From an uncultured Eubacteriales bacterium (GTDB lineage Bacteria > Bacillota > Clostridia > Oscillospirales > Oscillospiraceae): a stretch of 64,000 bases of DNA. The position numbers and the translations under genes are program-made. Numbering within the stretch: position 1 is the first letter of the stretch; every line of letters begins with the position of its first letter. The stretch covers positions 99,869 through 163,868 of the forward strand of contig URDJ01000001.1 in assembly GCA_900546615.1 (NCBI GenBank), in the 5' to 3' direction. Under the pieces are notes generated by a model. That model did no database searches. It had not been told where the DNA came from and was given only the letters and a program-made list of their open reading frames with translations. Below, piece by piece: positions 10,108 to 53,533 of the stretch.

Positions 10108-10111
10108 CAAC

Positions 10112-11879: not shown

Positions 11880-11923
11880 TTCGGGTTTCCTCCTGATATA
11901 TTTTGACGCTGTGAAACGCAATG

Positions 11924-13749: not shown

Positions 13750-14501
13750 AGTCCCCTCCCCAGCAGGAAGGTGCGCCCATATGGATAGGGCGGGCCTTCA
13801 AGACATTCGGCTGCGTGCCGCCTCGCCCCGGCGTGGTCGGTCACGACCATGCCCGCGAGCCGATCTATGCCACAGTCCAGCAGCGCCGGGCAGAGCGGCA
13901 CCGTCGGCCCCGTGAGCACCACAAAGGCGTTCCTGCACAGCTCCAGCAGCCGCGGCAGGGTCTTGTTCACGATGGAGCTGCCCGTTATGAGCACGATATC
14001 GCAGTCGGGCAGGATGAACTCGCAGGCCGAGTCCGGGTAGTCGCCCGGCTTCGGGTGCTTCTCGAGTATGTACACGCTCTCCGCCGTATCCAGCGTGCCG
14101 GGCGGCATCCGCAGGTGGCCGATAAGCCCCACCTTCCTGCCCGTAACGTCGAGACCCCGCAGGCAGTAGTTGTCATAGGGCTCGGCGCAGCCCAGCTCCG
14201 CCATGCGCTCAGGCGTGTTGTAAAAGGCGTTTATCGCCGCGACGCCCAGGCCCGCCTCTATGAAGTTCCAGCTCCTGGCAGCCTCCGCCGCGACCCTTAT
14301 CCTCATGCCCTCGATGCCGTTCGGATAGCGCGGGGCTATGGAGTCGCCCTCCGTCGTCATGGCATAGCCCGCGCCGCCCATATCCGTCTCGACCAACGTC
14401 CAGCGCTCGCCCGCCGTCGTCCTCGCCACCGTGCCCGTCCTCGGCAGGCCCGCCAGCAGCGCGTCATACAGCTCCCACATGTTGCTCACTCTCTTTTCCA
14501 T
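13746..14501 (-). CDS. DUF364/DUF4213 protein (putative metal-chelate handling)
   Basis: This protein of up to 251 residues has an N-terminal DUF4213-like domain and a C-terminal Rossmann-like DUF364 domain (PF04016, annotated as putative heavy-metal chelation). Recognisable pieces are NGIEGMRIRVAAEAARSWNF, GLGVAAINAFYN, KVGLIGHLR and VLITGSSIVNKTLPRLLELC. No enzymatic activity is established. ATG at 14501 lacks a ribosome site and sits in a palindrome that may be part of the promoter, so ATG at 14480 may be the true start. It heads the ABC importer unit, suggesting it processes or senses the imported metal species. Confidence 0.8.
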   Translation of the reverse strand: MEKRVSNMWELYDALLAGLPRTGTVARTTAGERWTLVETDMGGAGYAMTTEGDSIAPRYPNGIEGMRIRVAAEAARSWNFIEAGLGVAAINAFYNTPERMAELGCAEPYDNYCLRGLDVTGRKVGLIGHLRMPPGTLDTAESVYILEKHPKPGDYPDSACEFILPDCDIVLITGSSIVNKTLPRLLELCRNAFVVLTGPTVPLCPALLDCGIDRLAGMVVTDHAGARRHAAECLEGPPYPYGRTFLLGRGL

Positions 14502-14577: not shown

Positions 14578-15141
14578 TTACAGCGCATATTCCTCGACCC
14601 AGTGCCGGAGCGCGCCTTCGGCGTTGGCGTCGTACCTGCCCGTAGTCTCTAGCAGGAGCGTGTCGGGGTCGTCCTCCAGCAGCTCGCGCAGCTCGCGGGC
14701 CGCGTCCATATACTCAGGCGGGAGCTTGACTCGTCTCGTCAGCTCCTCCGCGCCCGGCAGGGCCTTGAGTACGCCCACGCAGGGTTTGCCCGAGAACAGA
14801 AAGGCCGTCAGCGCCTCGTAGAAGTCGGGGTACAGCAGCTCAAAACCGCCGATCTCGTCCATGAGCGCGAATTTTTTCTCCTGAGCCTGCCGGAGCAGTG
14901 CCGGGGCTGTCTCGGTGAAGGGCCGTTCGCTCCGTACCGTGCCCGCCCCGCCGAAGCTCAAAAAGCGCTCCCTCGTCTTCCCGTCCAAGGAGCAGAGGTC
15001 GAAGCCCGCGAGGCGCCCGTCCTCTATGACCCGGAGCGTCAGGAAGCCTCCCGCGTCCCGGACCGCGCCGCCCAGCGCGTTTACGATGAGCGTGGATTTG
15101 CCGCAGCCTATGGGTCCCGTCAGCAGGAGACGTCGCTTCAA
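14578..15141 (-). CDS. THEP1-like nucleoside-triphosphatase (NTPase_1)
   Basis: This 187-residue P-loop NTPase of the THEP1/NTPase_1 family (PF03266) has Walker A GPIGCGKST (residues 9-17), Walker B FALMDEIGGFE and the family's compact size. THEP1 proteins hydrolyse NTPs broadly; their cellular role is poorly defined. It overlaps xdhC by 4 bp, which ties it to molybdenum cofactor maturation, perhaps as a nucleotide-dependent chaperone or switch for MCD formation or insertion (inference). A 76-bp gap with a small hairpin separates it from the DUF364 gene. Confidence 0.85.
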   Translation of the reverse strand: MKRRLLLTGPIGCGKSTLIVNALGGAVRDAGGFLTLRVIEDGRLAGFDLCSLDGKTRERFLSFGGAGTVRSERPFTETAPALLRQAQEKKFALMDEIGGFELLYPDFYEALTAFLFSGKPCVGVLKALPGAEELTRRVKLPPEYMDAARELRELLEDDPDTLLLETTGRYDANAEGALRHWVEEYAL

Positions 15142-16151
15142 AGGGCGTTCCTCCCGGCCCTGACCTCTATCATCTGCGCGGCGATGGAGATGGCGATCTC
15201 CGCCGGGGTCTCGGCCTTTATGTCCAGCCCGATGGGCGTGGTGATGCGCGCAAAGTCCTCGTCCGTGAAGCCCTGTTCACGCAGCTGCCTCTGCACGCCC
15301 GCGGTCTTTGCCTTGCTGCCGATGACGCCGATGTAGCAGGCTGGCGTCCGCAGCGCCTGGGCCTGGACGACGGTGTCGTAGGCGTGGCCGCGCGTCATGA
15401 TGCAGATGTAGTCCTCGGGGCCTATCGTGACGCTCGCGCCGATGTTTTCGAAGTCCACGAGCAGGATCTTCTCCGCCCCGCGCATGACCCGCTCGTTTGC
15501 AAACTCCGGCCTGTCGTCCAGGGCGACACAGCGGAAGCCCACATGCTCCAGGACCGGTACCAGCTCCTGCGCCACGTGCCCGCAGCCAAAGACGTAGACC
15601 TTGCCCGAGGAGTTTATCTGCTCGGCGTAGAAGTCGCGCCCGTCCTGCTTTTTCCGCGTCGGGTGGCGCGACATGATGTCCCGCGTCCATTCCGGGGCCT
15701 CGAGGCCGAAGAAGCCCTCCGCCGCCGACCACAGGCCCAGCCTCCCGCCGTCCGATATCTCCGAGAGCAGCCAGAGGTCCTCGCCCTCTGCAAACCTGCG
15801 CTCGGCCTCCTCCGCTATGGACAGGACGTAGGTGTCGTTCGCCGGGATGTAGCTGAAATACACGTTCACGGCCCCGCCGCAGATCATGCCGAGGTTCTGC
15901 ACGTCGTTTTTCGTGAGCGAAAAGTCGTGCTCGCCGCTGCGCTTTTCCTCGAGCACCTTTTTGGCCAGCTGCTCGGACTTATACTCCACCGCGCCGCCGC
16001 CTATGGTGCCGCAGATGCGCCCGTTTTTGCCGACCAGCATCCTCGCACCCGCGCCCCTCGGCGTCGCGCCCGAGGACGCTATCACCGTGACGAGCACCAG
16101 TTCCTCGCCGTTTTTGAGCCTTCCGGCTATCTCCCTGAACATGTTCCTCAT
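15138..16151 (-). CDS. xdhC: XdhC/CoxI-family molybdenum hydroxylase maturation factor
   Basis: This 337-residue XdhC family protein binds the molybdenum cofactor, promotes its sulfuration and inserts it into xanthine dehydrogenase-type enzymes. It has the N-terminal XdhC/CoxI signature (ASSGATPRGAGARMLV), GTIGGGAVE, a CGGAVNVYF motif, and a C-terminal Rossmann domain with VYVFGCGHVAQELVPVLEHVG and a following DDRPEF. It overlaps both neighbours by 4 bp (THEP1 and the phosphatase-HD gene). The obvious client is the aldehyde oxidoreductase at 18.7 kb, transcribed divergently. Confidence 0.92.
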   Translation of the reverse strand: MRNMFREIAGRLKNGEELVLVTVIASSGATPRGAGARMLVGKNGRICGTIGGGAVEYKSEQLAKKVLEEKRSGEHDFSLTKNDVQNLGMICGGAVNVYFSYIPANDTYVLSIAEEAERRFAEGEDLWLLSEISDGGRLGLWSAAEGFFGLEAPEWTRDIMSRHPTRKKQDGRDFYAEQINSSGKVYVFGCGHVAQELVPVLEHVGFRCVALDDRPEFANERVMRGAEKILLVDFENIGASVTIGPEDYICIMTRGHAYDTVVQAQALRTPACYIGVIGSKAKTAGVQRQLREQGFTDEDFARITTPIGLDIKAETPAEIAISIAAQMIEVRAGRNAL

Positions 16152-17227
16152 ATCGGCACTACATCCTTTCCGCAGAAATCGTTTATCATCTTTGCCGCCG
16201 CGAGCGCAGACTGATACCGCCTCTCATGCGCCCGGCGGGCCTCCTCGTCCCGGCATTTATCGAGGCTTGCCCGGAAGCGCTCCGATACGCGCACCATCCG
16301 GCCGCCCCGGCAGAGCTTGTCCGCGACATTCACGACCATGGCCTCGTCCAGCTTCGACCCATCCTCCAGGTCGTGGTGCTGCGCCATGAGCGGCGCGAGC
16401 GCCGGGTAGCCCAGCTGGGACATGAGCCCCGCGCCGGCCAGCGCGTGGTCCGGCGTGCCCTTCGACACGTCGTGCAGCAGCGCCGCCGCATACACAAGAT
16501 TCTCGTCAAGGCAGGCGCCCGCCGCCGCCAGAGCGCAGACTATCTCCATCGCAGTCTCCGCCGTCAGCCGGCTGTGTGCGTGAAGCTCCTCCGGCAGCTC
16601 CGCTGCCTCGAGCAGCCTTGCGGCGAGCTCCGGCGTCAACTCCGGCACGGGCAGCACGCCGTATTCGCAGAGCCTGAAGTCCCCGGCGTATTCCAGCCGC
16701 GTCACCGAGCCGTAGGGCAGGACAAAATCCCGCGCGCAGTCGAAGGGACGCCCCTCGATGGTGCACAGCAGGGTCTGTATGACCGAGGAGTGCGATACTA
16801 TTATGATATCGCCCCTCGAGAGCGCCAGCGCCCTTTTGACCGCCGCCGTGAATCTCCTGTTCGCGTCCTCGAACCCCTCCCCTCCGGGAGGCGGCAGCGA
16901 GCGGTCGCGTCCGCGCCTTTCGTAGTATTCCGGCCAGCGCCGGCGTATCTCGTCAAAGCTCAGCCCGTCCCAGTCCCCGGCGTCCATCTCCTCCAGCCCG
17001 GGTATTACCACCGCCGAGACACAGCCCATCAGCTCCGCCGTCTGACGGCTGCGCGACAGGCGCGAGCAAAAGCACTCGTCAACGCCCCGGCCCTCAAACT
17101 CCGCGCCCAGCAGCGCCGCCTGCAGTCTTCCCCTCAGGCCCAGCGGCGTGTCCGTCCGGCCAAGGCACATCCTCGCCCCGCCGGGAAAATCCGGCATCCC
17201 GTGCCGGATAAGGTATATCTCTCTCAT
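16148..17227 (-). CDS. Histidine phosphatase-HD domain fusion protein
   Basis: This 359-residue two-domain protein has an N-terminal histidine phosphatase (phosphoglycerate mutase-like) domain with catalytic IRHGMPDF (~6-13), Arg/His features and the second His in IIVSHSSVIQTL (~150-160). A C-terminal HD domain follows (~195-350) with metal-binding AALLHDVSKGTPDH and AQHHDLEDGSK. The pairing suggests phosphoester hydrolysis on a nucleotide or phosphorylated cofactor intermediate. It overlaps xdhC by 4 bp and is 15 bp from the cytidylyltransferase gene, so a role in molybdopterin dinucleotide metabolism or quality control is inferred. The actual substrate is unknown. Confidence 0.82.
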   Translation of the reverse strand: MREIYLIRHGMPDFPGGARMCLGRTDTPLGLRGRLQAALLGAEFEGRGVDECFCSRLSRSRQTAELMGCVSAVVIPGLEEMDAGDWDGLSFDEIRRRWPEYYERRGRDRSLPPPGGEGFEDANRRFTAAVKRALALSRGDIIIVSHSSVIQTLLCTIEGRPFDCARDFVLPYGSVTRLEYAGDFRLCEYGVLPVPELTPELAARLLEAAELPEELHAHSRLTAETAMEIVCALAAAGACLDENLVYAAALLHDVSKGTPDHALAGAGLMSQLGYPALAPLMAQHHDLEDGSKLDEAMVVNVADKLCRGGRMVRVSERFRASLDKCRDEEARRAHERRYQSALAAAKMINDFCGKDVVPI

Positions 17228-17242
17228 CCCGCCTCCATACGG

Positions 17243-18172
17243 CTAGTTCCTGAACAGGTCCGGGAAATACTCCGCGAACAGCTCGTCCGCCGTGGCCCTG
17301 ACCCTCTGCGTATACGCTTCATAGGCGCGCAGCAGCTCGCGGCCCTTTTCCGTCAGCTCGCTCCGGCCGCCCTTCGGCCCGCCCTGAGTCCGCACGACCA
17401 CGGCGTAGCCCAGCTCCTTCTCCAGCAGGTTTATGGCGTTCCAGCCCGAGCTGTAGGATAGCTGCATCCTCTGGCAGGCCAGACGCACCGAACTCGTCTC
17501 GTCCGTCAGCGCGAGCAGCATGGCCACACGGGAATCCAGAAATTTCTTCTCCCTCGCTATGGCTATCTGCATCACCGGCCGCACAAGCTGGCTGTTGTGC
17601 AGTTCAAGAAGCTCCTTATAGTCCTCCGGCGTGTCCGCATCATGCAGGATACCGGGATCGTCCACTTCGACAAAGGTCATGGGCACCCCGCAGCGCGAGA
17701 GCGCGCCCTGCAGCCCGCCTTCGCCCGGGTCGTCCAGTATCCGGCCTATGACATCCGACGACATCAGTATCGGGTGTCCGCGGCTCCCACCGCAGACCGG
17801 ACAGACCAGCGGCGCGCCGGTGTTCAAAAGAGCCTCGGCGGTGGCCGCCGTGAAAAGCGGGATGTCCACAGGCGTAAAAAGCACCTGCCGGCACTTGTCC
17901 CGCAGGTACCTGAGACCTATGAGCGCGGAATCGAACATATGCGTCGTGCGGTATCTCTCATTGCGCAGGAAAATCACGCCGCTGCGGGCCAGATGCCACT
18001 CCAGCTCCTCGGCATTGTAGCCCGTGACAACGACTATCCTCGACGCGCCCGCCTGCCTGAGCGTAGCGATGACGCGCTGGGCGATGGATATCGAACCTAT
18101 GCTCAACATGGGCTTGAACTCACCCATGCGCGACGACATTCCCGCCGCAACGACGACGGCGCCGGTCTCCAT
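17243..18172 (-). CDS. MocA-like nucleotidyltransferase fused to a ModE-like HTH
   Basis: In this 309-residue protein the N-terminal ~195 residues are a MobA/MocA-type NTP transferase (VVVAAGMSSRMGEFKPML, VVVTGYNAEELEW, FTPVDIPLF, GHPILMS), expected to add CMP to molybdopterin to form MCD. The C-terminal ~100 residues are a winged helix like the ModE DNA-binding domain (SYSSGWNAINLLEKELGY, GGPKGGRSELTEKGRELL). I use the ATG at 18172, just behind GGGAGG; a longer version would add 27 residues. I recall this architecture as the DVU_1551 family. The enzyme may therefore also regulate the divergent promoters. Confidence 0.87.
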   Translation of the reverse strand: METGAVVVAAGMSSRMGEFKPMLSIGSISIAQRVIATLRQAGASRIVVVTGYNAEELEWHLARSGVIFLRNERYRTTHMFDSALIGLRYLRDKCRQVLFTPVDIPLFTAATAEALLNTGAPLVCPVCGGSRGHPILMSSDVIGRILDDPGEGGLQGALSRCGVPMTFVEVDDPGILHDADTPEDYKELLELHNSQLVRPVMQIAIAREKKFLDSRVAMLLALTDETSSVRLACQRMQLSYSSGWNAINLLEKELGYAVVVRTQGGPKGGRSELTEKGRELLRAYEAYTQRVRATADELFAEYFPDLFRN

Positions 18173-18333: not shown

Positions 18334-18600
18334 TTATATGCTGTTGCTGTGCCCTCCGCAGGGGTCTTTGTCGGGTCCTCCACCCGTGAGATCGCGCAGT
18401 CGGCTGAGTCCTGTATTAGAATAGAATACCAATTCTGCCGGCTTTCCCTCGGCGTCCTCGGCTGCCAGCCTGAGGCAATTTGCAGTCTCCGTATAGTCTA
18501 TCGGCAGCGTGCGTCTGAGGGTCTGTCCCGATTTGGGGTCCGTCACCTCTATGGTGATCTCCGAGGCGCGAATTTCCTTGAGCGCGTTCATATTTTCCAT
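18334..18600 (-). CDS. Small uncharacterised protein, 88 residues
   Basis: I do not recognise this protein. It begins MENMNALKEIRASEITIEV, contains DPKSGQTLRRTLPIDYTET and LVFYSNTGLSRLRDL, and ends in a Gly/Asp-rich tail with one Cys before HSNSI. Codon use is GC3-rich like real genes here. GGGAGG lies 11 nt before the ATG, a slightly long spacing. The other overlapping frames lose this composition. It lies between the divergent cytidylyltransferase and aldehyde oxidoreductase genes, on the cytidylyltransferase strand, and so probably belongs to the molybdoenzyme locus. It is easily missed because of long antisense frames. Confidence 0.6.
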   Translation of the reverse strand: MENMNALKEIRASEITIEVTDPKSGQTLRRTLPIDYTETANCLRLAAEDAEGKPAELVFYSNTGLSRLRDLTGGGPDKDPCGGHSNSI

Positions 18601-18624
18601 CGTGCATACAGCCTCCCTTACGAA

Positions 18625-18647
18625 TACAGCCCGCGGTCTGGGCTGTA
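18625..18647. promoter_or_regulatory. Inverted repeat in the divergent control region
   Basis: An 8-bp perfect inverted repeat (TACAGCCC with GGGCTGTA, 7-nt spacer) lies between the small minus-strand gene and the oxidoreductase gene. It is next to AT-rich -10-like sequence, so it could be an operator or a leader hairpin. Confidence 0.4.
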
Positions 18648-18690
18648 TAAATATATCATATCCTGTCATCGTTTTAAAGTGTTGATTTGG

Positions 18691-18703
18691 AGCGCAGTGC
18701 GCT
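18691..18703. promoter_or_regulatory. Palindrome AGCGCAGTGCGCT upstream of the aldehyde oxidoreductase
   Basis: A 6+6 palindrome with a 1-nt centre lies 48 bp before the oxidoreductase ATG, flanked by GTTGAT and a distant ATCAAC. A candidate promoter for the enzyme gene (TTGAAG, 16 nt, TATCAA ending at 18731) begins just downstream. Confidence 0.35.
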
Positions 18704-18750
18704 TTGAAGGATATCTGGGTGAAAGTATCAACAATAAAGGAGGAAACCGC

Positions 18751-21492
18751 ATGTTCAAAAAAGTCCTGATCATCAACGGGGTCGAGCGTACGCTCGTACT
18801 GGAGGGTACCGAAACGCTCGCCAAGGTGCTCCGTGAGCGCCTGCTGCTCACGGGCTGTAAGATAGGCTGCGGCGAGGGCCACTGCGGCGCCTGCAACGTC
18901 ATAGTTGACGGCAAGGTCACCCGCTCCTGCATCACCAAGGTCATGAAGCTGCGCGACTACGCCGAGATAACCACCATCGAGGGCATCGGCACGGTCAACA
19001 ATCTGCATCCCATCCAGGTCGCGTGGATGGCCTACGGCTGCGCACAGTGCGGCTTCTGCAGCCCGGGCTTCATCGTCAGCGCAAAGGTCCTGCTCGAGCA
19101 GAATCCGAACCCGACCCGCGAGGAGGTCCGCGACTGGTTCAACAAGAACCGCAACCTCTGCCGCTGCACCGGCTACAAGCCGCTCATCGACGCTACGATG
19201 GCCGCCGCTGCCGTCATGCGCGGTGAGATGAGCAAAGAGGATCTGCTCTTTAAGCCCACCGAGAACGTAATCACCGGCACGACCTACGCCCGCCCGTCCG
19301 CGGCGATGAAGGTCACCGGCACCTGGGACTTCGGCGCCGACCAGGCCCTGACCATGCCGGAGGGCACCCTGCGCCTGGCCCTGGTGCAGGCCGAGGTCTC
19401 CCACGCGAACATCAAGGGCGTCGACACCTCCGAGGCCGAAAAGATGCCCGGCGTCTTCAAGGTCATCACCGCGAAGGACGTCCCCGGCAAGAACCGCATA
19501 AACGGCCTCGTCATGCTCCCGCTCAACAACAAGTGCGACGGCTGGGACCGCCCGATCCTCTGCGACGAGAAGGTCTTCCAGTACGGCGACGCCATCGCGA
19601 TAGTCGCGGCCGACACCGAGGCGCATGCGCGTGAGGCGGCGAAGGCGGTCAAGGTCGACCTGGAGGTCCTGCCCGCGTACATGAGTGTGCCCGAGGCGCT
19701 GGCGCCCGACGCCATAGAGATCCACCCCGGCACGCCGAACGCATACTATGAGACCAACTGCATCAAGGGCCCCGACTTCGACTTCGACTCCGCGCCGAAC
19801 GTCATCGAGGTCGAGAGCTACTGCTCGCGCCAGCCGCACCTGTATCTGGAACCGGACAACGGCTACGCCTACATAGACGAGGACGGCATGCTGACCGTCC
19901 ACTCCAAGAGCATAGGCATCCACCTGCATATGCCCATGATAGCCGACGGCATCGGCGTGACGATGGATAAGCTGCGCCTCGTGCAGAACCACGCGGGCGG
20001 CACCTTCGGCTACAAGTTCTCGCCCACGAACGAGGCGATACTGGGCGTTGCGGCGCTTGTGTGCCAGAAGCCAGTCTCGCTGAACTTCAACATGTACCAG
20101 TCCATCACCTACACCGGCAAGCGCAGCCCGGGCTTCATGCACATCAAGCTCGCAGCAGACAACGATGGCAAGGTGCTGGCGCTCTGGGGCGACAACTACA
20201 TCGACCACGGCCCGTACTCCGAGTTCGGCGACCTGCTGACCCACCGTCTGAGCCAGTTCGTCGGCGCGGGCTTCGACATCCCGACAATAAGGAACAAGAG
20301 CACGACTGTCTTCACGAACCACGCCTGGGGCAGCGCCTTCCGCGCCTACGGCTCGCCGCAGTCCTTCATGGGCAGCGACATCGCCATGGACATCATGGCT
20401 GCGAAGCTCGGTATGGACCCCTTCGAGTTCAGGGCGAAGAACTGCTATAAGGAGGCCGACGATTCCAGGACGCCGAACGGCTGCAAGCCGGATGTCTACT
20501 GCGAGGAGGATTTGTTCAACCTCGCGCGGCCCTACTACGAGGCGGCGAAGAAGCGCGTCGCGGAGAAGAACGCCGCGTCCGACGGCAAGATCAAATACGG
20601 CGTCGGCGTGTCCCTCGGCGTCTACGGCTGCGGCCTTGACAACTCGGACGCTTCCGAGTGCTGGGCGGACCTGAATCCGGACGGCACGGTCACACTGCGC
20701 AATTCCTGGGAGGACCACGGCCAGGGCGCCGACATAGCGACGCTGACCGCCGGCCATGAGACCCTGCGTCAGGCGGGCTTCACGCCGGAGATGATAAAGC
20801 TCGAGCTGTGCGACACGAAGCTCACGCCGAACTCCGGCCCTGCCGGCGGCAGCCGCTCCACGGTCATGACCGGCTCGGCCACGCGCGTCGCCTGCGAGAA
20901 CCTGCTCAAGGCCATGCGGAAGCCGGACGGCACTTACAGGACCTATGACGAGATGAAGGCCGAGGGCATCGACACCCACGCCGTGGGCGTCTACACCTAC
21001 ACCGCCTCCGTCGCGCTCGACCAGGCAACCAGCCAGGGCGAGCCCTTCCCGACCTACATGTACACCATCTTCCTGCCCGAAGTCGCGGTCAACACCGAGA
21101 CCGGCAAGGTCAAGGTCGAGAAGTTCACGGCGGTCGCGGATGTCGGCACGATACTCAACAAACTGGCCGTTGACGGCAACTTCTACGGCGGCCTCGTCCA
21201 GGGCATCGGCCTTGCGCTGACCGAGGACTTTGAGGACCTCAAGAAGCACACGAGCCTCATGAAGTGCGGTATCCCGTACCCGAACGACGCTCCGGACGAC
21301 ATCGAGGTCATCTATCAGGAGAACCACCCGCGCCCGAACGGCCCGTACGGCGCCTCCGGCTGCGGCGAGGCCCCGCTGGACGCCCCGCACCCGGCCATCC
21401 TGAACGCCATCTTCAACGCCACCGGCGCGAGGATCACCCGCGTCCCGGCCCTGCCCGAGGTAGTGCTCGAGGCTCTGGCGAAGGTGAAATAA
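18751..21492 (+). CDS. mop: Molybdenum-dependent aldehyde oxidoreductase, Desulfovibrio MOP type
   Basis: This 913-residue single-subunit xanthine oxidase-family enzyme oxidises aldehydes to carboxylates using MCD and two [2Fe-2S] clusters. From the AAAGGAGG-backed ATG the plant-type cluster cysteines fall at C40, C45, C48 and C60. The second cluster is at C100, C103, C137 and C139, the same numbers I recall for Desulfovibrio gigas MOP (907 residues). EDHGQGADI and AFRAYGSPQSF lie in the molybdenum domains, and the catalytic Glu is E873 in GASGCGEAPL. There is no FAD subunit, so electrons probably leave to a ferredoxin, a flavodoxin or the downstream Fe-S protein. The physiological aldehyde is unknown. 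Confidence 0.95.
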   Translation: MFKKVLIINGVERTLVLEGTETLAKVLRERLLLTGCKIGCGEGHCGACNVIVDGKVTRSCITKVMKLRDYAEITTIEGIGTVNNLHPIQVAWMAYGCAQCGFCSPGFIVSAKVLLEQNPNPTREEVRDWFNKNRNLCRCTGYKPLIDATMAAAAVMRGEMSKEDLLFKPTENVITGTTYARPSAAMKVTGTWDFGADQALTMPEGTLRLALVQAEVSHANIKGVDTSEAEKMPGVFKVITAKDVPGKNRINGLVMLPLNNKCDGWDRPILCDEKVFQYGDAIAIVAADTEAHAREAAKAVKVDLEVLPAYMSVPEALAPDAIEIHPGTPNAYYETNCIKGPDFDFDSAPNVIEVESYCSRQPHLYLEPDNGYAYIDEDGMLTVHSKSIGIHLHMPMIADGIGVTMDKLRLVQNHAGGTFGYKFSPTNEAILGVAALVCQKPVSLNFNMYQSITYTGKRSPGFMHIKLAADNDGKVLALWGDNYIDHGPYSEFGDLLTHRLSQFVGAGFDIPTIRNKSTTVFTNHAWGSAFRAYGSPQSFMGSDIAMDIMAAKLGMDPFEFRAKNCYKEADDSRTPNGCKPDVYCEEDLFNLARPYYEAAKKRVAEKNAASDGKIKYGVGVSLGVYGCGLDNSDASECWADLNPDGTVTLRNSWEDHGQGADIATLTAGHETLRQAGFTPEMIKLELCDTKLTPNSGPAGGSRSTVMTGSATRVACENLLKAMRKPDGTYRTYDEMKAEGIDTHAVGVYTYTASVALDQATSQGEPFPTYMYTIFLPEVAVNTETGKVKVEKFTAVADVGTILNKLAVDGNFYGGLVQGIGLALTEDFEDLKKHTSLMKCGIPYPNDAPDDIEVIYQENHPRPNGPYGASGCGEAPLDAPHPAILNAIFNATGARITRVPALPEVVLEALAKVK

Positions 21493-21521
21493 GAGGCTTT
21501 TATAAAGCGAATAACCATGGT

Positions 21522-21553
21522 AAAATGGGGGAGGCGGAAGCCTTCCCCATTTT
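21522..21553 (+). terminator. Intercistronic hairpin after the aldehyde oxidoreductase
   Basis: A 14-bp stem with one mismatch (21522-21535 with 21540-21553) and a GGAA tetraloop, followed by TTTG, sits between the enzyme gene and the next ribosome site. It likely acts as a partial terminator or 3'-end stabiliser, giving more enzyme mRNA than downstream mRNA. Confidence 0.7.
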
Positions 21554-21575
21554 GTCTCGGACAGGAGGACGGCAC

Positions 21576-23861
21576 ATGGACTTTACCGAACGTTCGACAA
21601 GGGTATACCGCACAAAGCAGCTCTACACGAAGGAGGAGCTGGCAGCGCGCGAGGCGCTGTGCGTGCACGAGCAGCCGGCCTTCTGCGCCGCAGCCTGCCC
21701 GCTGCGGCTGGACGCGAGGGAGCTTTTGGGCTGCGCGGCGAAGGGCGACCTCGCCACGGCCCGGGCCATGCTCGAGCGGGCGACGCCCTTCCCCGGCATC
21801 CTCGCTGCGGGCTGCGAGGCCCCATGCAAGGCCGCGTGCAGATTGAACGAGGTTCCCGGATGCGAGGCCGTGGACATCCCCGCAATAGAGCGCGCCGCCA
21901 TGCGGCACGGCGCCGCGAGGACGGGAAAGGGTCTGCTCAAGTTCAAGAAGAAAAAGACCGCCGCCGTCTTTGGCGCGGAGCTTTTCACGCTCATCGTCGC
22001 GGGCGAGCTTGCGGGCAAGAGCTACCCCACAAGGTTCTGCGTCGCCGTGGGCTCGGCGGAGGAACTCATTGACAAATGCGCGCCGTTTTTGTGCCCCGAG
22101 GACAGGGCCGCGGAGATAAGAAGGCTGGAGTCCATGGACATAGAGCTTGAGTTCGGCGCAGAGCTGACGCCGGCGCTCGTGCGCGGCGCGGGCGCGGACA
22201 TAGTATGCGTCTCTCAGGAGGTGCTGGCGCTGCTCGACCCGGCCTCGGAACCTGACCCCGTCACGCTGTACTGCGGAAAGCTCGGCGTCCTGGCCCGTGC
22301 GGGCGCGGAGGGCGGCGTCATCGGTGCTTTTTACGACGCGCGGCGCGCAGGCGTCTCAGCGGACAGGCTGGCGCAGGGCATGTCGCCCGATACGATGCGC
22401 GGCGAGGAAGGCCCCGTCGAGAGCCGGCTGTATACAGACCTCTCCGAGGCGCGGCCCGGCGGCAGTGTGCCTGAGGACGAGGGCTATACGCCCGAACAGG
22501 CCGCAGCTGAGGCAGGGCGCTGCATACAGTGCCGCTGCGAGGAGTGCGTCAAGGGCTGCGCCTGGCTCAGGCACTACGGTAAGTTCCCGCGCATCATGAC
22601 GCGCGAGATATACAACAACGTCGGCATCATCATGGGCGACCACATGATGAACGGAGCCATCAACTCCTGCGCTCTCTGCGGCCAGTGTACGGTGAACTGC
22701 CCCAACGGCTACGACATGGCCGAGATCTGCCTCTCGGCGCGGCGGAACATGGTCGCCACGGGCAAGATGAGCCTCGCCGTGCACGAATTTGCGCTCTACG
22801 ACCAGATTTTCTCGAACACCGAGGCGTTTTTATGCCGCGTGGAGCCTGGATATGAGACCTGCAAATATGTGTTCTTCCCCGGCTGTCAGGCTGGCGCCGT
22901 CGCTCCGGAGGCGGTGTACCGGGCGTATGCCGACCTGCGTGCGCGTCTTACCGGTGGAGTGGGCATACTGCTCGGCTGCTGCGGTATAATCTCGCGCTGG
23001 GCCGGAAGGGAAGAGCTGTTCGATGAGACCTGCGCGCTGCTTCGCTCCGAGCTTGACAAGCTGGGCAATCCCACGATCATCACGGCCTGCCCGACCTGTC
23101 AAAAGACAATGCGCGAGGCGGGCATCGGCGAGTGCAGGGGCATCTGGGACGTGCTGCTCGAACTAGGCCTGCCGGAGAGCGCGCCCACGGCCTGCGGCGA
23201 GGCGGTCATACACGACGCCTGCGGCGCGAGGGGCGACGCGGCGACGCAAAACGCGGTGCGAGAGCTGGTGTCGAAGCTCGGCTGCAGGATAACGGAGCCG
23301 GCCCACACGCTGGACCGCTCCGACTGCTGCGGCTACGGCGGTCTCGCGGGCTACGCAAAGCCCGAGGTCGCGGCGGACTACACCAAGGCCGCGCTGGAGG
23401 GCTGCGAGGGCTTGCAGCTCACCTACTGCATGGGCTGCCGCGACCGCTACGCGCGTCATGGCGCGGAGAGCGCGCACATATTGGAGCTTATCTACGCATC
23501 CCCGGCCGGAGACCCGCCCGGCATCTCTGAAAAACGCAAAAACCGTTTGACCCTGAAGCAGCGGCTGCTGCGCGACATCTGGAAGGAGGACACACACATG
23601 GCCCCGAGAGGCTACAAGATCGAGTATACCCCCGAGGTGAAGGAGCTCATGGAGCAGCGCATGGTGCTCGAGAGCGACATTGAGACCGTCATGCAGGCCT
23701 ACCGCGAGGGCGGCGAGGCCATATACGAGGCGGATACCGGCCTGCGCATCTCGCGCTACCGTCTCGGCAACGTCACCTTCTGGGTGAAATTCACGGAGGA
23801 CGCCGAGGGCTATGTCATCCACAGCGCGTACAGCCACAGGATGACCGTCGAGACGAGGTAG
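21576..23861 (+). CDS. Multi-cluster Fe-S protein with HdrB-like CCG domains and degenerate nucleotide-binding region
   Basis: Predicted 761 residues from the ATG behind ACAGGAGG. The N-terminal ~115 residues resemble the dicluster domain of GltD-like proteins (C29, C37, C41; C80, C84, C88). Residues ~120-310 sit where a pyridine nucleotide-disulfide fold belongs, but the glycine-rich FAD motif is lost (AAVFGAELFTLI). Next come ferredoxin-type motifs (CIQCRCEECVKGC; CALCGQCTVNCPNG) and two CCG modules (FFPGCQAG, LGCCGI; DACGARGD, DCCGYGG) as in HdrB. Residues 675-761 form a separate small domain ending in YSHRM. It probably moves electrons or reduces disulfides for the molybdoenzyme system. 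I recall relatives named pyridine nucleotide-disulfide oxidoreductase/dicluster-binding protein. Confidence 0.85.
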   Translation: MDFTERSTRVYRTKQLYTKEELAAREALCVHEQPAFCAAACPLRLDARELLGCAAKGDLATARAMLERATPFPGILAAGCEAPCKAACRLNEVPGCEAVDIPAIERAAMRHGAARTGKGLLKFKKKKTAAVFGAELFTLIVAGELAGKSYPTRFCVAVGSAEELIDKCAPFLCPEDRAAEIRRLESMDIELEFGAELTPALVRGAGADIVCVSQEVLALLDPASEPDPVTLYCGKLGVLARAGAEGGVIGAFYDARRAGVSADRLAQGMSPDTMRGEEGPVESRLYTDLSEARPGGSVPEDEGYTPEQAAAEAGRCIQCRCEECVKGCAWLRHYGKFPRIMTREIYNNVGIIMGDHMMNGAINSCALCGQCTVNCPNGYDMAEICLSARRNMVATGKMSLAVHEFALYDQIFSNTEAFLCRVEPGYETCKYVFFPGCQAGAVAPEAVYRAYADLRARLTGGVGILLGCCGIISRWAGREELFDETCALLRSELDKLGNPTIITACPTCQKTMREAGIGECRGIWDVLLELGLPESAPTACGEAVIHDACGARGDAATQNAVRELVSKLGCRITEPAHTLDRSDCCGYGGLAGYAKPEVAADYTKAALEGCEGLQLTYCMGCRDRYARHGAESAHILELIYASPAGDPPGISEKRKNRLTLKQRLLRDIWKEDTHMAPRGYKIEYTPEVKELMEQRMVLESDIETVMQAYREGGEAIYEADTGLRISRYRLGNVTFWVKFTEDAEGYVIHSAYSHRMTVETR
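23582..23600 (+). promoter_or_regulatory. Internal ribosome site and ATG within the Fe-S protein gene
   Basis: GAAGGAGG at 23582-23589 stands 8 nt before an in-frame ATG at 23598, with no stop codon between the upstream protein and this start. Internal initiation would give a separate 87-residue copy of the C-terminal domain. This could be an ancestral gene boundary turned into a fusion. Confidence 0.5.
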
Positions 23862-23865
23862 CGCC

Positions 23866-24087
23866 ATGGCGGAGGAGAAGAGCTATTACGTCGTTGACCC
23901 CGGCGGGCGCTATCGCTGCCTCAAGTGCGATGTGCCGCTGGTGAAGGGCAACGCGGTGTTCGGCTATCTCGACAACGCCTTCCCCGTGGAGCTGCCCGTC
24001 TGTCCCAGGTGCGGCTTTGTGTTCGTGCCGGAGGAGCTGGCGATGGGCAAGGTGCTCTCGGTGGAGAAGGTGCTCGAGGACAAGTGA
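23866..24087 (+). CDS. Small double-CxxC zinc-ribbon/redox protein
   Basis: This 73-residue protein has two knuckles, YRCLKCDVPL (~17-26) and LPVCPRCGFVFV (~45-56), which can form one zinc or rubredoxin-like iron site. It begins 4 nt after the Fe-S protein stop and its TGA overlaps the methyltransferase ATG. I recall the family as DVU_1557 redox protein next to Desulfovibrio aldehyde oxidoreductase. A small electron carrier or a metal-binding scaffold for the radical SAM/methyltransferase pair are both possible. Confidence 0.75.
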   Translation: MAEEKSYYVVDPGGRYRCLKCDVPLVKGNAVFGYLDNAFPVELPVCPRCGFVFVPEELAMGKVLSVEKVLEDK

Positions 24088-24611
24088 TGGAGCGGCATCC
24101 CGGCGGCGCTGACGCCGCTCTGCGGCTCGTGGGGCTTGCGGGGCTTGAGCCGCCATGCCGTATCATAGACCTCGGCGCGGGCTCCGGCGAGAGCGTGCGG
24201 CGGCTGCGCGCCCTCGGCTTTGACGCCGTGGGCATAGACCTTGCGCCCGGCGCGGACGTGGAGCGTGGGGATATACTCGCTCCGCCCTTTGGCGACGCCT
24301 CCTTTGATGCGGCCTTGAGCGAGTGCGCGTTCTTCCTCACCGGCGACCCGGAAAGGGCGCTCCGTGAGGCGGCAAGGCTGCTCAGGCCCGGCGGCAAGCT
24401 GCTCTTTTCCGACATCTGCCCCGGCGGGGAGTCCTGGCTGCGCAGGACCTCGGAACAGTCCGGGTTCGCGGTTGAGGCGCTAATCGACGCCACGGACGAA
24501 TGGAAGCGATATTACATCGAGGCCCTCTGGCGCGGCAAGGCCGAGGGCCCGCCCGACGGAGTGCGGAACTGCCGCTATATCTACGCGGTGCTGAGGAAGG
24601 AGGCGTGGTAA
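24087..24611 (+). CDS. Class I SAM-dependent methyltransferase of the aldehyde oxidoreductase cluster
   Basis: This 174-residue methyltransferase has a Rossmann fold: SAM-binding motif I IDLGAGSGESVRRLRALG (~26-43), the acidic loop GIDLAPG, ALSECAFFL as motif IV equivalent, and RPGGKLLFSDICPGG. The start ATG overlaps the previous stop (TGATG), so the longer frame upstream is only the shadow of the zinc-ribbon gene. I recall this as the DVU_1556/TrsM family, consistently beside a radical SAM protein. The methyl acceptor is unknown. Confidence 0.85.
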   Translation: MERHPGGADAALRLVGLAGLEPPCRIIDLGAGSGESVRRLRALGFDAVGIDLAPGADVERGDILAPPFGDASFDAALSECAFFLTGDPERALREAARLLRPGGKLLFSDICPGGESWLRRTSEQSGFAVEALIDATDEWKRYYIEALWRGKAEGPPDGVRNCRYIYAVLRKEAW

Positions 24612-24612
24612 A

Positions 24613-25023
24613 ATGGACGACGTGTTTGGAAGGATGCTTGAGCTCTCGAGGAAGGGCTATTTCTGCGCGCAGATACTCATGCAGCTGGCGCTGGACGCCG
24701 AGGGGAAGGACTGCCCGGAGCTCATACGCGCCATGGGCGGTCTCAACGCGGGCATCGGCTTCTCCGGCGGCCCCTGCGGTGCGCTGACCGGCGGGGCCTG
24801 CTTCCTCGCCTATTTCTCCGAGGGCATGGAGCCGCAGGAGCGCGAGGCCATGCTCAGGGAATTCCACGACTGGTTCCGGGAACGCACGGCCGAATACGGC
24901 GGCGAGAGCTGCGACAGCATACTCGCGGGCGACCCCACGAACCAGCTGCGCCGCTGTCCTGCGCTGGTGCAGGAGGTCTATGGCAAGTGCGTCGAGCTGC
25001 TCTCGGAAAGGGGCCTCGCCTGA
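24613..25023 (+). CDS. C-GCAxxG-C-C family protein
   Basis: This 136-residue protein of the C_GCAxxG_C_C family (PF09719) has the defining glycine/cysteine stretch GFSGGPCGALTGGACF at ~48-63, an N-terminal FCAQ and later cysteines (SCDSIL, RCPALV). The family is thought to be redox-active or Fe-S/metal binding, but no function is established. It starts 1 nt after the methyltransferase stop and overlaps the radical SAM gene start, so it is co-translated with both. Confidence 0.82.
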   Translation: MDDVFGRMLELSRKGYFCAQILMQLALDAEGKDCPELIRAMGGLNAGIGFSGGPCGALTGGACFLAYFSEGMEPQEREAMLREFHDWFRERTAEYGGESCDSILAGDPTNQLRRCPALVQEVYGKCVELLSERGLA

Positions 25024-26306
25024 TGTACGAGGTATTCGCAAGGACAAAAAGCGTCTGTCCCGTGTGTCTCAGGACGATAGACGCCGAAAAAGCCGTGGCC
25101 GGGGACGGGTTTGTCCATCTCATCAAGACCTGCCCCGAGCACGGCTTTTTTGACACGCTGATCTGGGAGGGCGGCGCGGACGAGTACCTCGCCTGGGGCG
25201 GAGCCTTCCCCGGTGACGAGGCAGACGACGGCTGCCCAAACAACTGCGGCCTCTGCGCGGGGCATAAAAGCGAGGGCTGCTGCGTCCTGCTCGAGCTGAC
25301 GCGCCGCTGCGATCTCCGCTGCCCGGTCTGCTTCGCCTCCGCCGGCGGTGAGGGCGACCTCGGACTCGACGAGATCGCGCGGCTCTACGACATGCTCATG
25401 GCGCGCGGAGGCCTCTTCAACATCCAGCTCTCGGGCGGCGAGCCGACCATGCGCGACGATCTGCCCGAGATAGTACGTCTTGGCCGGGAGCGTGGCTTCA
25501 CCTTCTTCCAGCTCAACACCAACGGTCTGCGTCTCGCCTCTGAGGATGGCTACGCGGCAAAGCTGCACGCGGCGGGGGTCTCCTGCGCCTTTTTGCAGTT
25601 CGATGGGCTGCGGCCGGAGACGCATGAGGCGCTCCGGGGCCGCAATATCCTCGCGGAAAAGCTCAGGGCCATTGATGCCTGCGAGGGGGCGGGACTGCCC
25701 GTAGTGCTCGTGCCGACGCTCGTGCCGGGCGTGAACGTGGACGAGCTGGGCGGCATACTGCGCTTCGCACTCGGGCGGGGCAAAATCGTCCGGGGAGTGC
25801 ACTTCCAGCCCGTGAGCTACTTCGGCCGCTGCGAGCTGCCGGAGCCGGAGACGCGGCTGACCATACCGCGCGTCATGCGCGGGATAGAGGCTCAAACAGA
25901 CGGCGCGATGAAGTTTGCGGACTTCGGCGGCGGCGGGGCGGAAAGCCCATGGTGCAGCTTTCACGCCAGTTACCGCAAGCTCCCGGACGGGAGGCTCAAG
26001 GCCCTGCCGAGGCGGGAGAGCGCCTGCTGCTGCAAAAATAGCTCCGAGGCCCGCGATTTTGTCGCCGGGCGCTGGGGCTTCGGCTCTGAGTCGCGCGAGG
26101 ACGAGGACGGCTTCGACCGCTTCATGCGCGAGACCGTGGAGAACACCTTCACTGTCTCCGGCATGGCCTTCATGGACGCGGACAGCCTCGAGCTGGACAG
26201 GCTCCGGCGCTGCTACATAAGCGAGGCCGACATGGAACGCGGCATGGTGCCCTTTTGCGCCTACAACCTCACGGCGAGGGACGGGCGCGCACTGTACAGG
26301 AAATGA
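25023..26306 (+). CDS. Cysteine-rich radical SAM protein (TrsS-like)
   Basis: This 427-residue radical SAM enzyme carries the SAM-cluster motif C96-x3-C100-x2-C103 (TRRCDLRCPVCFA), followed by SGGEPTMRDDL as the SAM-binding GGE. Other cysteines are an N-terminal knuckle (C12, C15), C37, a second CxxxCxxC (C71, C75, C78), the pair C86-C87 and a CCC run near residue 340, so extra Fe-S clusters or metal ligands are likely. I recall this family as radical SAM (seleno)protein TrsS, with selenocysteine in some members; here all are Cys. Its ATG overlaps the preceding TGA and its own TGA overlaps the next ATG. The reaction is unknown. Confidence 0.85.
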   Translation: MYEVFARTKSVCPVCLRTIDAEKAVAGDGFVHLIKTCPEHGFFDTLIWEGGADEYLAWGGAFPGDEADDGCPNNCGLCAGHKSEGCCVLLELTRRCDLRCPVCFASAGGEGDLGLDEIARLYDMLMARGGLFNIQLSGGEPTMRDDLPEIVRLGRERGFTFFQLNTNGLRLASEDGYAAKLHAAGVSCAFLQFDGLRPETHEALRGRNILAEKLRAIDACEGAGLPVVLVPTLVPGVNVDELGGILRFALGRGKIVRGVHFQPVSYFGRCELPEPETRLTIPRVMRGIEAQTDGAMKFADFGGGGAESPWCSFHASYRKLPDGRLKALPRRESACCCKNSSEARDFVAGRWGFGSESREDEDGFDRFMRETVENTFTVSGMAFMDADSLELDRLRRCYISEADMERGMVPFCAYNLTARDGRALYRK

Positions 26307-27505
26307 GAAAGACGAGGCTTGAAAACTGGATATGCGAAGTCGAGGGTCTTTCGGCCCTTGACTGTAAGACGCTTGAGGATATCCAACTCCGGCGCCTGAA
26401 TGAGCTGCTCGCGCGCGAGAAGGCGCGCGGCGGGTTCTACAAGGGCCTGCCGGAGCGGCTGGGCAGCCTGGCAGAGCTCAGGCACCTGCCCTTCACCACG
26501 CCGGAGCAGCTCGCGGAAAACGCGCCGGGTCTGCTGCTGACCTCTCAGGCCGAGGTGAGCCGCATCATCTCCGGCGCGACGAGCGGCACGACGGGGCCGT
26601 CTAAGCGGATATTCTACACCGAGCGGGATATCACGCACACCGTCGGCTTTTTCGCCGCGGGCATAGGCGAGTTTGTCTCCACGGGTGAGGCGGTGGCCGT
26701 CGCCATGCCCTTCTCCGGGCCGGACGGGCTGGGAGAGCTCATCTGCCGGGCTGTGGAGCGCCTGGGCGCAAGGCCGGTGAGGATGGGCGTGGGCAGGGGC
26801 CTCGGCGAGCAGGCGGAAATGCTCGAGGCTGAACGCCCCGAGGCGTACATCGGTATGCCCGTACCGCTGCTGGGGCTCATGCGTTGGATGGGTTCTCCGG
26901 GGAGCCTCCGCCGGGCGCTGGTCTCCGGCGATGCCTGCCCCGGGGGCGTCATGCTGGAGCTGGAGCGGCTGCTCGGCACGCGGCTCTTCCCGCACTACGG
27001 CTCGCGTGAGATGTGCCTCGGCGGGGCGGTGACCTGCCCGGCGCACGAGGGCATGCACCTGCGGGAAAACCACGTCATTGCGGAGATAGTCTCCCCCGAA
27101 GGCGAGGCGCTGCCGGACGGGGAGTTCGGTGAGCTGGCCGTCACCACCGTGGACATGCAGGCGATGCCGCTCATACGCTACAAAACCGGCGACTACACGC
27201 GATTTTTGCCCGGCCCCTGCCCCTGCGGCGGCGTTACGCGGCGGCTGGACACGGTACGGCGCGCAAGGGAGACCCCCGATATCGTGGACCTGGACAGTGC
27301 GCTCTTTGCCCTGCCTGGGCTCATCGACTACTCGGCGCGCCTGGACGGCGGGCAGCTCATTGTCGACGCCGTGGGTACCGTGACGGCAGAGGAGCTCGAG
27401 AGCGCAGCGCAGGCCCTGTATCCCGCGCTCGGCGTCAAGGCCGGCGTGCGTCCGGCCTCACCCGATTTCCGCGGCTGCTGCGCCGGGAAACGCTGCATAC
27501 TGTGA
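26303..27505 (+). CDS. PaaK-like AMP-forming ligase of the aldehyde oxidoreductase cluster
   Basis: This 400-residue adenylate-forming enzyme is related to phenylacetate-CoA ligase. It has the AMP-binding P-loop SGATSGTTGPSKRIFYTE (~91-108), the aromatic/acidic motif HYGSREMCLGG (~230-240), and RYKTGDYT as the A8-type motif, then a short C-terminal domain. I recall it as the DVU_1553 family. It could activate the carboxylate made by the oxidoreductase as acyl-CoA, or adenylate a precursor during cofactor or protein modification. ATGA overlap with the radical SAM gene argues for close functional linkage. It is the last gene before a strong terminator. Confidence 0.83.
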   Translation: MRKTRLENWICEVEGLSALDCKTLEDIQLRRLNELLAREKARGGFYKGLPERLGSLAELRHLPFTTPEQLAENAPGLLLTSQAEVSRIISGATSGTTGPSKRIFYTERDITHTVGFFAAGIGEFVSTGEAVAVAMPFSGPDGLGELICRAVERLGARPVRMGVGRGLGEQAEMLEAERPEAYIGMPVPLLGLMRWMGSPGSLRRALVSGDACPGGVMLELERLLGTRLFPHYGSREMCLGGAVTCPAHEGMHLRENHVIAEIVSPEGEALPDGEFGELAVTTVDMQAMPLIRYKTGDYTRFLPGPCPCGGVTRRLDTVRRARETPDIVDLDSALFALPGLIDYSARLDGGQLIVDAVGTVTAEELESAAQALYPALGVKAGVRPASPDFRGCCAGKRCIL

Positions 27506-47795: not shown

Positions 47796-47824
47796 ACGCG
47801 CCTCCAAGTCTAAAAGTTTTTTGC

Positions 47825-47942
47825 CCCGCTTTTTACGAATAAAACGAGCAAGCATGGGCGCAGCCCTGAGTGCAGCCCGTTTTATTCGTAAAAAGCGGGT
47901 AGAGTCCAGAGGCAAAGCCTCTGGTCGCCCGCCGCAGCGGGC
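47825..47942. repeat. Palindromic repeat element inside the purine operon
   Basis: A perfect 22-bp inverted repeat (47825-47846 with 47878-47899, 31-nt loop) is followed by two more perfect hairpins, 47906-47924 (8-bp stem, AAA loop) and 47927-47942 (6-bp stem, CGCA loop). There is no T-tract. The three lie in the 157-bp gap between the AICAR transformylase and purD genes and look like a REP/BIME-like mobile palindromic unit. No second copy was seen in this window. Confidence 0.65.
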
Positions 47943-47952
47943 GAAACTCCCC

Positions 47953-52794: not shown

Positions 52795-52821
52795 TTTTCT
52801 CTCCCGGTAGAATCAAAAAGT

Positions 52822-53532: not shown

Positions 53533-53533
53533 C

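What the first reader, a model, noticed from the sequence alone, without database searches (positions are those of the whole stretch)
18334..27505. Aldehyde oxidoreductase with a dedicated, chemically unexplained maturation or cofactor pathway
The MOP-type enzyme is followed by six genes with ATGA/TGATG overlaps: an HdrB-like Fe-S protein, a zinc-ribbon protein, a methyltransferase, a C-GCAxxG-C-C protein, a Cys-rich radical SAM enzyme and a PaaK-like AMP ligase. None is needed for canonical MCD insertion. I recall the same set beside the Desulfovibrio vulgaris aldehyde oxidoreductase (DVU_1551-1559, TrsS/TrsM names). The combination of radical SAM, methyltransferase and adenylating enzyme suggests synthesis of a small modified ligand or a post-translational modification of the enzyme. 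The alternative is a pathway that uses the aldehyde product.
Basis: partly seen in the sequence, partly recalled or inferred. Interest (0 to 1): 0.88.

Follow-up and report, generated by a model that had tools for sequence, protein, structure and literature searches.

The report
Aldehyde oxidoreductase with companion biosynthetic pathway
A gut bacterium carries a molybdenum aldehyde-oxidising enzyme together with a conserved set of genes that looks like an assembly line for a still unknown small molecule, and the pattern suggests the molecule helps the enzyme itself, rather than being a way to use up what the enzyme makes.

Summary
The seven genes are real and contiguous (18751-27505, +): MOP, a multi-domain Fe-S protein (DIC), zinc ribbon, methyltransferase, C-GCAxxG-C-C protein, radical SAM TrsS, PaaK-like ligase. 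NCBIfam already catalogues them; the function is unknown. Among 299 genomes TrsS occurs in 18, all with this MOP; three more have MOP without TrsS. New here: (1) TrsS keeps the metal ligands of the tetraether lipid synthase GDGT-MAS, labile Met included, but not its Tyr459. (2) D. gigas AOR nests among Trs-linked MOPs, and the passages read on its 1.28 A structure describe only MCD and two [2Fe-2S] clusters. (3) Trs genes stay beside MOPs with altered pockets, and ligase divergence follows TrsS, not the pocket, so the ligase probably does not act on the MOP product. (4) DIC carries two HdrB-type CCG motifs. (5) An unannotated small gene with a conserved tail (18334-18600, -) lies beside MOP. 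Best reading: Trs makes a small cofactor for the MOP-DIC unit, probably in electron transfer; maturation remains possible; covalent modification of MOP and use of its product are disfavoured. All of this is computational; the D. gigas locus itself could not be read.

The parts
18751..21492 (+). MOP: single-subunit molybdopterin aldehyde oxidoreductase, two [2Fe-2S] domains plus Moco domains, no FAD domain
   Evidence: NF045668 1510.7 bits over cut-off 1100; D. gigas AOR 1sij 1178.8 bits over 1-905; all 8 Fe-S Cys and Glu869 kept. ATG read; the scans used 18745, two residues too long
21576..23861 (+). DIC: Fer4_20 + remnant flavin domain + 4Fe-4S dicluster + two CCG motifs + C-terminal domain; predicted electron partner of MOP
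   Evidence: NF045663 754.2 bits; Pfam Fer4_20, dicluster and CCG in 14 of 14 aligned members, NAD/FAD-binding domain in 8 of 14 and not in the window's; each Cys of both CCG motifs in 82 of 83
23866..24087 (+). ZnR: 73-aa zinc-ribbon or rubredoxin-like protein
   Evidence: NF045645 DVU_1557 90.5 bits; its four Cys in 90 of 90
24087..24611 (+). TrsM-like class I SAM methyltransferase, short form (174 aa)
   Evidence: NF045667 107.3 bits, below cut-off 155; Methyltransf_11
24613..25023 (+). C-GCAxxG-C-C protein (CGA)
   Evidence: NF045669 141.4 bits over 103; PF09719; Cys 18, 55, 100 and 115 in 89 of 89, Cys63 in 88 of 89
25023..26306 (+). TrsS: Tes/GDGT-MAS-like radical SAM enzyme
26303..27505 (+). 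PaaK-like AMP-forming ligase (DVU_1553 family), catalytic motifs intact
   Evidence: NF045666 328.9 bits over 300; nearest solved 4r1l phenylacetate-CoA ligase, 107 bits; SGTTG, YGSRE, TGD and C-terminal GKR in the sequence; which motifs are catalytic is recalled
18334..18600 (-). X: unannotated 88-aa protein, beta domain + helix + conserved flexible tail (GPDxDPCGxH), divergent from MOP
   Evidence: The window's and L113's X: no NCBIfam hit, no Pfam hit above gathering score; found in 45 distinct loci, 43 of them next to MOP; model pLDDT 83.4, falling to 69 and 49 in the last two blocks; no fold match
17243..18172 (-). MocA-like nucleotidyltransferase with C-terminal ModE-type domain (N half of DVU_1551)
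   Evidence: NF045665 184.7 bits over model 2-196, TIGR03310 108.9, ModE 55; all below cut-offs
16148..17227 (-). Histidine phosphatase fused to HD domain (C half of DVU_1551)
   Evidence: NF045665 119.3 bits over model 199-357; alpha-ribazole-phosphatase-like N part
15138..16151 (-). XdhC-family maturation factor
   Evidence: NF045664 325.6 (cut-off 350), TIGR02964 165.5 over 161.6; PF13478, PF02625
14578..15141 (-). P-loop NTPase
   Evidence: PF03266 60.0 bits
10746..14501 (-). DUF4213/DUF364 protein (13746-14501) and FecCD-type metal ABC importer: permease 12706-13749, ATPase 11924-12709, binding protein 10746-11927; probably molybdate or tungstate uptake (inference)
   Evidence: Pfam, NCBIfam; a permease-family gene also beside Trs genes in L022, L024, L030, L053, L127

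Best explanation
MOP + DIC form the catalytic unit: MOP oxidises an aldehyde at MCD, and because it lacks a flavin domain its electrons leave through its two [2Fe-2S] clusters to DIC, whose HdrC-like dicluster feeds an HdrB-type double-CCG site. The Trs set (TrsS, TrsM, ligase, with ZnR and CGA as probable redox helpers of TrsS) is a separate anaerobic pathway that builds one small, carboxylate-bearing molecule: TrsS makes a C-C or C-S bond at an unactivated carbon by Tes-like chemistry, TrsM methylates, and the ligase adenylates the carboxylate and passes it to a thiol. The product serves the MOP-DIC unit whatever aldehyde MOP handles, most likely as a loosely held redox cofactor at the DIC end, less likely as a maturation factor. 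Shown by computation: gene set, co-occurrence, metal-ligand conservation, pocket independence (as an indication), position of D. gigas AOR. Inferred: electron path, reaction order, nature and use of the product.
Against: The product and its site of use are unknown. In vitro D. gigas AOR passes electrons to flavodoxin (passage), so DIC need not be its acceptor. G215 has two MOP genes and DIC without TrsS, ligase or CGA over cut-off; G081 and G091 also lack a full TrsS, so the unit may work without the product. Six of the 18 TrsS genomes have no CGA over cut-off and one (G084) has no ligase near it. In the closest TrsS bin (0.40-0.45) the ligase is more distant for different-pocket pairs (0.601, n 5) than for same-pocket pairs (0.522, n 196), against the other bins, and the raw ligase-pocket correlation is 0.43; pairs are not independent. 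The cluster Cys ligands are also kept by most of seven weaker Tes-like relatives, so they are not special to TrsS. No HdrB chain of the PDB reached E 0.001 with the DIC profile (HdrC did), and Pfam finds one CCG domain in the window's DIC. Whether D. gigas itself has Trs genes was not tested.
Confidence: 0.42

Rival explanations
1. Trs is a maturation pathway: its product or TrsS itself acts on MOP or its MCD cofactor during assembly (transient ligand, cofactor repair such as dithiolene redox state, or a modification lost on purification) and is absent from the finished enzyme.
For: Trs genes lie in one island with XdhC and MocA-like genes; MOPs with different pockets share Trs; D. gigas AOR can be isolated in active and inactive forms of identical mass that differ in the dithiolene S7 oxidation state (abstract and passages of PMC3877041), so the cofactor of this clade has an unusual activation problem.
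Against: Dithionite plus sulfide alone activates inactive D. gigas enzyme. Maturation does not by itself need a ligase and a methyltransferase. MOP occurs without a full TrsS in 3 of 21 genomes.
Confidence: 0.25
2. Covalent post-translational modification of MOP by TrsS/TrsM.
For: Radical SAM + methyltransferase beside one enzyme; a small unannotated protein with a conserved Cys tail is adjacent.
Against: D. gigas AOR lies among the Trs-linked MOPs; the passages that I read on its structures describe MCD and two [2Fe-2S] centres only, and the words 'modification', 'covalent' and 'post-translational' do not occur in the main text of PMC10223205. TrsS resembles a small-molecule (lipid) enzyme more than a SPASM peptide maturase.
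Confidence: 0.08
3. Catabolic pathway: MOP oxidises an aldehyde to an acid that the PaaK-like ligase activates to an acyl-CoA, with TrsS/TrsM making or tailoring the aldehyde.
For: PaaK-like ligases activate carboxylates; nearest solved relative is phenylacetate-CoA ligase; D. gigas AOR oxidises benzaldehyde; genes that look like Fe-alcohol dehydrogenase (by eye) lie in 6 loci, 4 of them with Trs; DVU_1559 is listed under ethanol metabolism; in the closest TrsS bin the ligase does differ more between pocket types (n 5).
Against: Over the other bins ligase divergence does not follow MOP pocket type; the pocket is identical from D. gigas to gut Clostridia while the ligase is only about 40% identical (window-L101); a Tes-like enzyme is an unlikely step in aldehyde catabolism; no catabolic family flanks the set generally.
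Confidence: 0.15
4. Membrane-lipid pathway: TrsS couples lipid chains as Tes does, and MOP and ligase handle fatty aldehydes and acids.
For: TrsS shares the metal-site set and fold of GDGT-MAS.
Against: Tyr459, conserved in archaeal GDGT-MAS, is Glu in 80 of 80 gut-type rows and Val, Ile or Phe in 18 of the 19 others, the 19th being a duplicate gut row; TrsS scores 297.9 against the Tes model (cut-off 450) and is shorter than GDGT-MAS; PaaK-like ligases are not fatty-acid enzymes (recall).
Confidence: 0.06

Closest known systems
DVU_1551-1559 / TrsS-TrsM gene set of NCBIfam (NF045645, 045646, 045663-045669); Haft and Tolstoy 2025 mSystems (title and citation seen; text not held)
   Same: Same families, neighbours and MOP; six of the seven plus-strand proteins score over the curated cut-offs.
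   Different: Window: TrsM below cut-off and short; DVU_1551 split in two genes, one half fused to a ModE-type domain and the other to a phosphatase; DIC flavin domain not detected; extra gene X; no in-frame TGA within TrsS.
GDGT-MAS / Tes tetraether lipid synthase (MJ0619, 7tol/7tom)
   Same: Whole-length fold, rubredoxin-type Fe site, N-terminal 4Fe-4S with His ligand, RS cluster, C-terminal 4Fe-4S with probable three Cys and labile Met.
   Different: Tyr459 replaced; shorter; extra conserved Cys86 and a Cys-rich loop (336-337); below the Tes cut-off.
Desulfovibrio gigas aldehyde oxidoreductase (1vlb/1sij)
   Same: Single subunit, two 2Fe-2S clusters, no FAD, same residues at the 12 active-site positions compared.
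   Different: Whether D. gigas has the Trs genes was not tested; flavodoxin is its in-vitro partner.
FeGP-cofactor (Hcg) and methanogen thiol-cofactor pathways (recalled)
   Same: Radical SAM + methyltransferase + carboxylate-adenylating enzyme building a small cofactor; HdrB site for a small disulfide.
   Different: No sequence relation was tested; only the logic is alike.

Membership tests
NCBIfam Trs/DVU_1551-1559 set | Curated cut-offs for MOP, DIC, ZnR, CGA, TrsS, ligase | tested here: met
   All six over cut-off
NCBIfam Trs/DVU_1551-1559 set | Methyltransferase DVU_1556 over cut-off | tested here: not met
   107.3 bits, cut-off 155; best family nevertheless
NCBIfam Trs/DVU_1551-1559 set | DVU_1551 NTP transferase in one chain over cut-off | tested here: not met
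   Split over two genes, 184.7 and 119.3 bits, cut-off 315
NCBIfam Trs/DVU_1551-1559 set | XdhC-family AOR maturation factor NF045664 over cut-off | tested here: not met
   325.6 bits, cut-off 350
Selenoprotein TrsS | In-frame UGA read as Sec | tested here: not met
   Window TrsS has no internal TGA; among the loci the TGA codons in TrsS matches were at the 5' edge of the match or the terminal stop
Tes / GDGT-MAS | Ligands of rubredoxin Fe, N-terminal, RS and C-terminal 4Fe-4S clusters incl. labile Met | tested here: met
   ligands from PMC9433317; the C-terminal Cys ligands are assigned here by alignment and conservation, not named in the passages read
Tes / GDGT-MAS | Tyr459 | tested here: not met
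   Glu401 in the window
Tes / GDGT-MAS | NCBIfam Tes cut-off (NF045702) | tested here: not met
   297.9 of 450 bits
Tes / GDGT-MAS | Second lipid pocket of amphipathic helices | tested here: inconclusive
   380 of 427 residues align to 7tom, target 498; pocket not modelled
D. gigas-type AOR (MOP) | Single chain, 8 Fe-S Cys, no FAD domain, catalytic Glu869 | tested here: met
HdrB | Two CCG motifs | tested here: met
   C437..C468C469..C505xxC508 and C549..C584C585..C618xxC621, 82 of 83; motif definition recalled; Pfam scores only the first
HdrB | Sequence relation to solved HdrB | tested here: inconclusive
   Profile finds HdrC and an iron-sulfur-binding reductase (9ojn, profile 348-598), no HdrB at E 0.001
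Peptide-modifying radical SAM (RiPP) system | SPASM domain and precursor peptide | tested here: inconclusive
   Best match is Tes rather than a SPASM maturase; X could be a precursor but its tail varies and it is absent from most non-gut loci

The most novel reading that the evidence does not exclude
The Trs genes make an undescribed small redox cofactor, possibly a thiol: TrsS uses Tes-like carbon-sulfur chemistry at its C-terminal cluster to functionalise an unactivated carbon, TrsM and the ligase finish the molecule, and the HdrB-type site of DIC uses it as the electron acceptor for aldehyde oxidation. It would be a bacterial counterpart of the coenzyme M / coenzyme B logic, serving an enzyme family whose first structure dates from 1995 and whose partner has stayed unknown.
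Probability: 0.2. Interest if true: 0.92.

Novelty: new variant of a known kind. Interest (0 to 1): 0.62.

Why it matters
D. gigas AOR is a textbook molybdenum hydroxylase, yet its relatives in the genomes sampled nearly always travel with a gene set whose function I found explained nowhere that I could read. If Trs makes a cofactor, the physiological role and electron acceptor of this enzyme class would have to be rethought, and a bacterial relative of the tetraether lipid synthase would gain a function: the GDGT-MAS authors note bacterial homologues in organisms not known to make such lipids and leave their reactions to future work. The pocket comparison narrows the options and makes the question testable with two mutants and one mass spectrum.

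Tried and rejected

Supplementary fitness tables were not available.

Rows set aside: five genomes with TrsS relatives of 242-356 bits (G091, G113, G132, G194, G303); four genomes with only 672-758-bit MOP relatives (G055, G065, G129, G287); DIC matches below about 690 bits. Loci L081-L100 and L139-L145 were left out of locus counts; L119 duplicates L075 (it is in the row counts, left out). 442 TrsS relatives were found but only 80 kept. The MOP tree used 55 sequences, a subset of the gut loci. In one search the ligase of L109 was taken from L110, another contig of the same genome.


Full report
WHAT IS THERE. The plus-strand genes are MOP 18751-21492, DIC 21576-23861, zinc ribbon 23866-24087, methyltransferase 24087-24611, C-GCAxxG-C-C protein 24613-25023, TrsS 25023-26306 and ligase 26303-27505. 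NCBIfam places six of the seven above curated cut-offs; the methyltransferase has its expected family as best match but below cut-off. Divergent from MOP run X (18334-18600), a MocA-like transferase with a ModE-type domain, a phosphatase-HD protein, XdhC, an NTPase, a DUF4213/DUF364 protein and a FecCD-type metal ABC importer. The organism looks like a spore-former (two spoVF-like genes, by eye) near Candidatus Scatomorpha (closest TrsS loci 70-71% identical); no genome is held for the window.

IS THE ASSOCIATION REAL. In a draw of 299 genomes from the phylum of G001 (the genome of L075, Blautia massiliensis), TrsS occurs in 18 genomes: 17 over cut-off, and G080 at 469.5 bits cut by a contig edge. 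MOP occurs in 21: 19 over cut-off, G081 and G084 as fragments at contig edges. All 18 TrsS genomes have MOP; three MOP genomes lack TrsS (G081, G215, and G091, which has only a 332-bit relative). Fisher's test gives 3.9e-26, not corrected for kinship. The ligase passes its cut-off in 15 genomes (two more, G038 and G080, at 281 and 275 bits), CGA in 12, all TrsS-positive; of the 18 TrsS genomes one (G084) has no ligase near the cut-off and six have no CGA over it. DIC is strong (about 690 bits or more) in 18 genomes, all with MOP; six others pass only by summed pieces and seem to be another protein. The search scores few candidates per genome, so misses are possible. In a second collection (80 loci kept of 442), 60 loci hold at least part of MOP on the contig, one more genome was covered (L044), and of the other 19 genomes 17 have a match (10 over cut-off, 7 as fragments below it): 78 of 80. 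In the remaining two (G314, G321) the TrsS contig ends within DIC, before the usual place of MOP.

IS THE LIGASE THE NEXT STEP AFTER MOP? At seven positions around the D. gigas active site (425, 494, 497, 535, 622, 626, 653; that these line the substrate tunnel is recalled, only Glu869 was seen in a paper), D. gigas, the window and 54 of 60 loci read F F L Y Y L H, while the six others have six other sets, two of them one residue apart. If the ligase acted on the MOP product, it should diverge with the pocket. Overall it does not: ligase distance correlates 0.93 with TrsS distance, and at equal TrsS distance same-pocket and different-pocket pairs are alike (0.607 and 0.568 at 0.45-0.50; 0.660 and 0.639 at 0.50-0.55; 0.680 and 0.660 at 0.55-0.60). 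The closest bin (0.40-0.45) goes the other way, 0.522 against 0.601, on five pairs. Ligase and TrsS thus look like one pathway with one constant product, independent of what MOP oxidises. The pairs are not independent, so this is an indication and not a formal test.

DOES THE PRODUCT STAY IN MOP? In the MOP tree D. gigas AOR lies among Trs-linked MOPs, next to those of L101-L107, whose nearest named TrsS relatives are Desulforamulus and Desulfotomaculum (no branch support was printed). A review of the enzyme describes MCD and two [2Fe-2S] centres, a 1.28 A structure, and in-vitro electron transfer to flavodoxin (passages); 'modification' and 'covalent' do not occur in its main text. Active and inactive native enzyme have the same mass and differ in the dithiolene sulfur S7 (abstract and passages of PMC3877041). 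Whether D. gigas carries Trs genes was not tested, so this argument is conditional.

THE PARTNER. DIC combines a Fer4_20 domain, a flavin/NAD domain recognisable in 8 of 14 aligned members but not in the window's, an HdrC-like dicluster and two CCG motifs; its cluster Cys are invariant in the 14. It lies beside MOP where Trs is absent from the genome (L122, G215) and beside a second MOP away from the Trs genes (L117), which marks it as electron partner and not as part of Trs. An HdrB-type site normally handles a disulfide or a similar acceptor (recall), which gives a natural place for a Trs-made molecule. This step is inference.

GENE X. Without an NCBIfam hit or a Pfam hit above gathering score, X is found in 46 rows, 45 distinct loci (L119 repeats L075): in 43 gut-type loci it lies beside MOP, and of the gut loci with an intact region upstream of a strong MOP only L073 lacks it; in L113 and L115 it lies near the ligase. 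1490 database proteins match its profile. Its tail (GPDxDPCGxH) is conserved and predicted flexible. A carrier, chaperone or precursor role is possible; its absence from most other loci shows that it is not essential to Trs.

VERDICT. A catalogued but functionally unexplained system, here in a gut-Clostridia variant. I favour a small-molecule cofactor serving MOP-DIC (0.42), then maturation (0.25), then catabolism (0.15).

Noticed in passing
   Followed up: yes
10746-14501 (-): DUF4213/DUF364 protein and FecCD-type ABC importer in the same island; a permease of this family also lies beside Trs genes in L022, L024, L030, L053, L127. Probably molybdate or tungstate uptake of the MolBCA type (recall).
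   Followed up: partly
17243-18172 and 16148-17227 (-): The DVU_1551 protein is split: the transferase half is fused to a ModE-type domain, the HD half to an alpha-ribazole-phosphatase-like domain.
   Followed up: partly
L110 9943-12609 and L111 6023-8689: A second, XDH-like MOP relative (792 and 778 bits) with ligase, CGA and TrsM-like genes beside it, in genomes that also hold TrsS and MOP; it may share the Trs pathway.
   Followed up: partly
L077 13212-15789: Genes that look like a ferredoxin-type protein and a tungsten aldehyde:ferredoxin oxidoreductase lie next to TrsS and the ligase, while MOP is on another contig (identity read by eye).
   Followed up: no
9250-10681 (+): Two genes that look like dipicolinate synthase subunits (spoVFA/spoVFB), suggesting a spore-former (by eye).
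   Followed up: no
59763-64001 (+): Start of what looks like an Rnf complex operon (ApbE-like, RnfC, RnfD, RnfG; by eye); a possible downstream electron sink.
   Followed up: no
46512-54085 (-): What looks like a purine biosynthesis operon (by eye).
   Followed up: no
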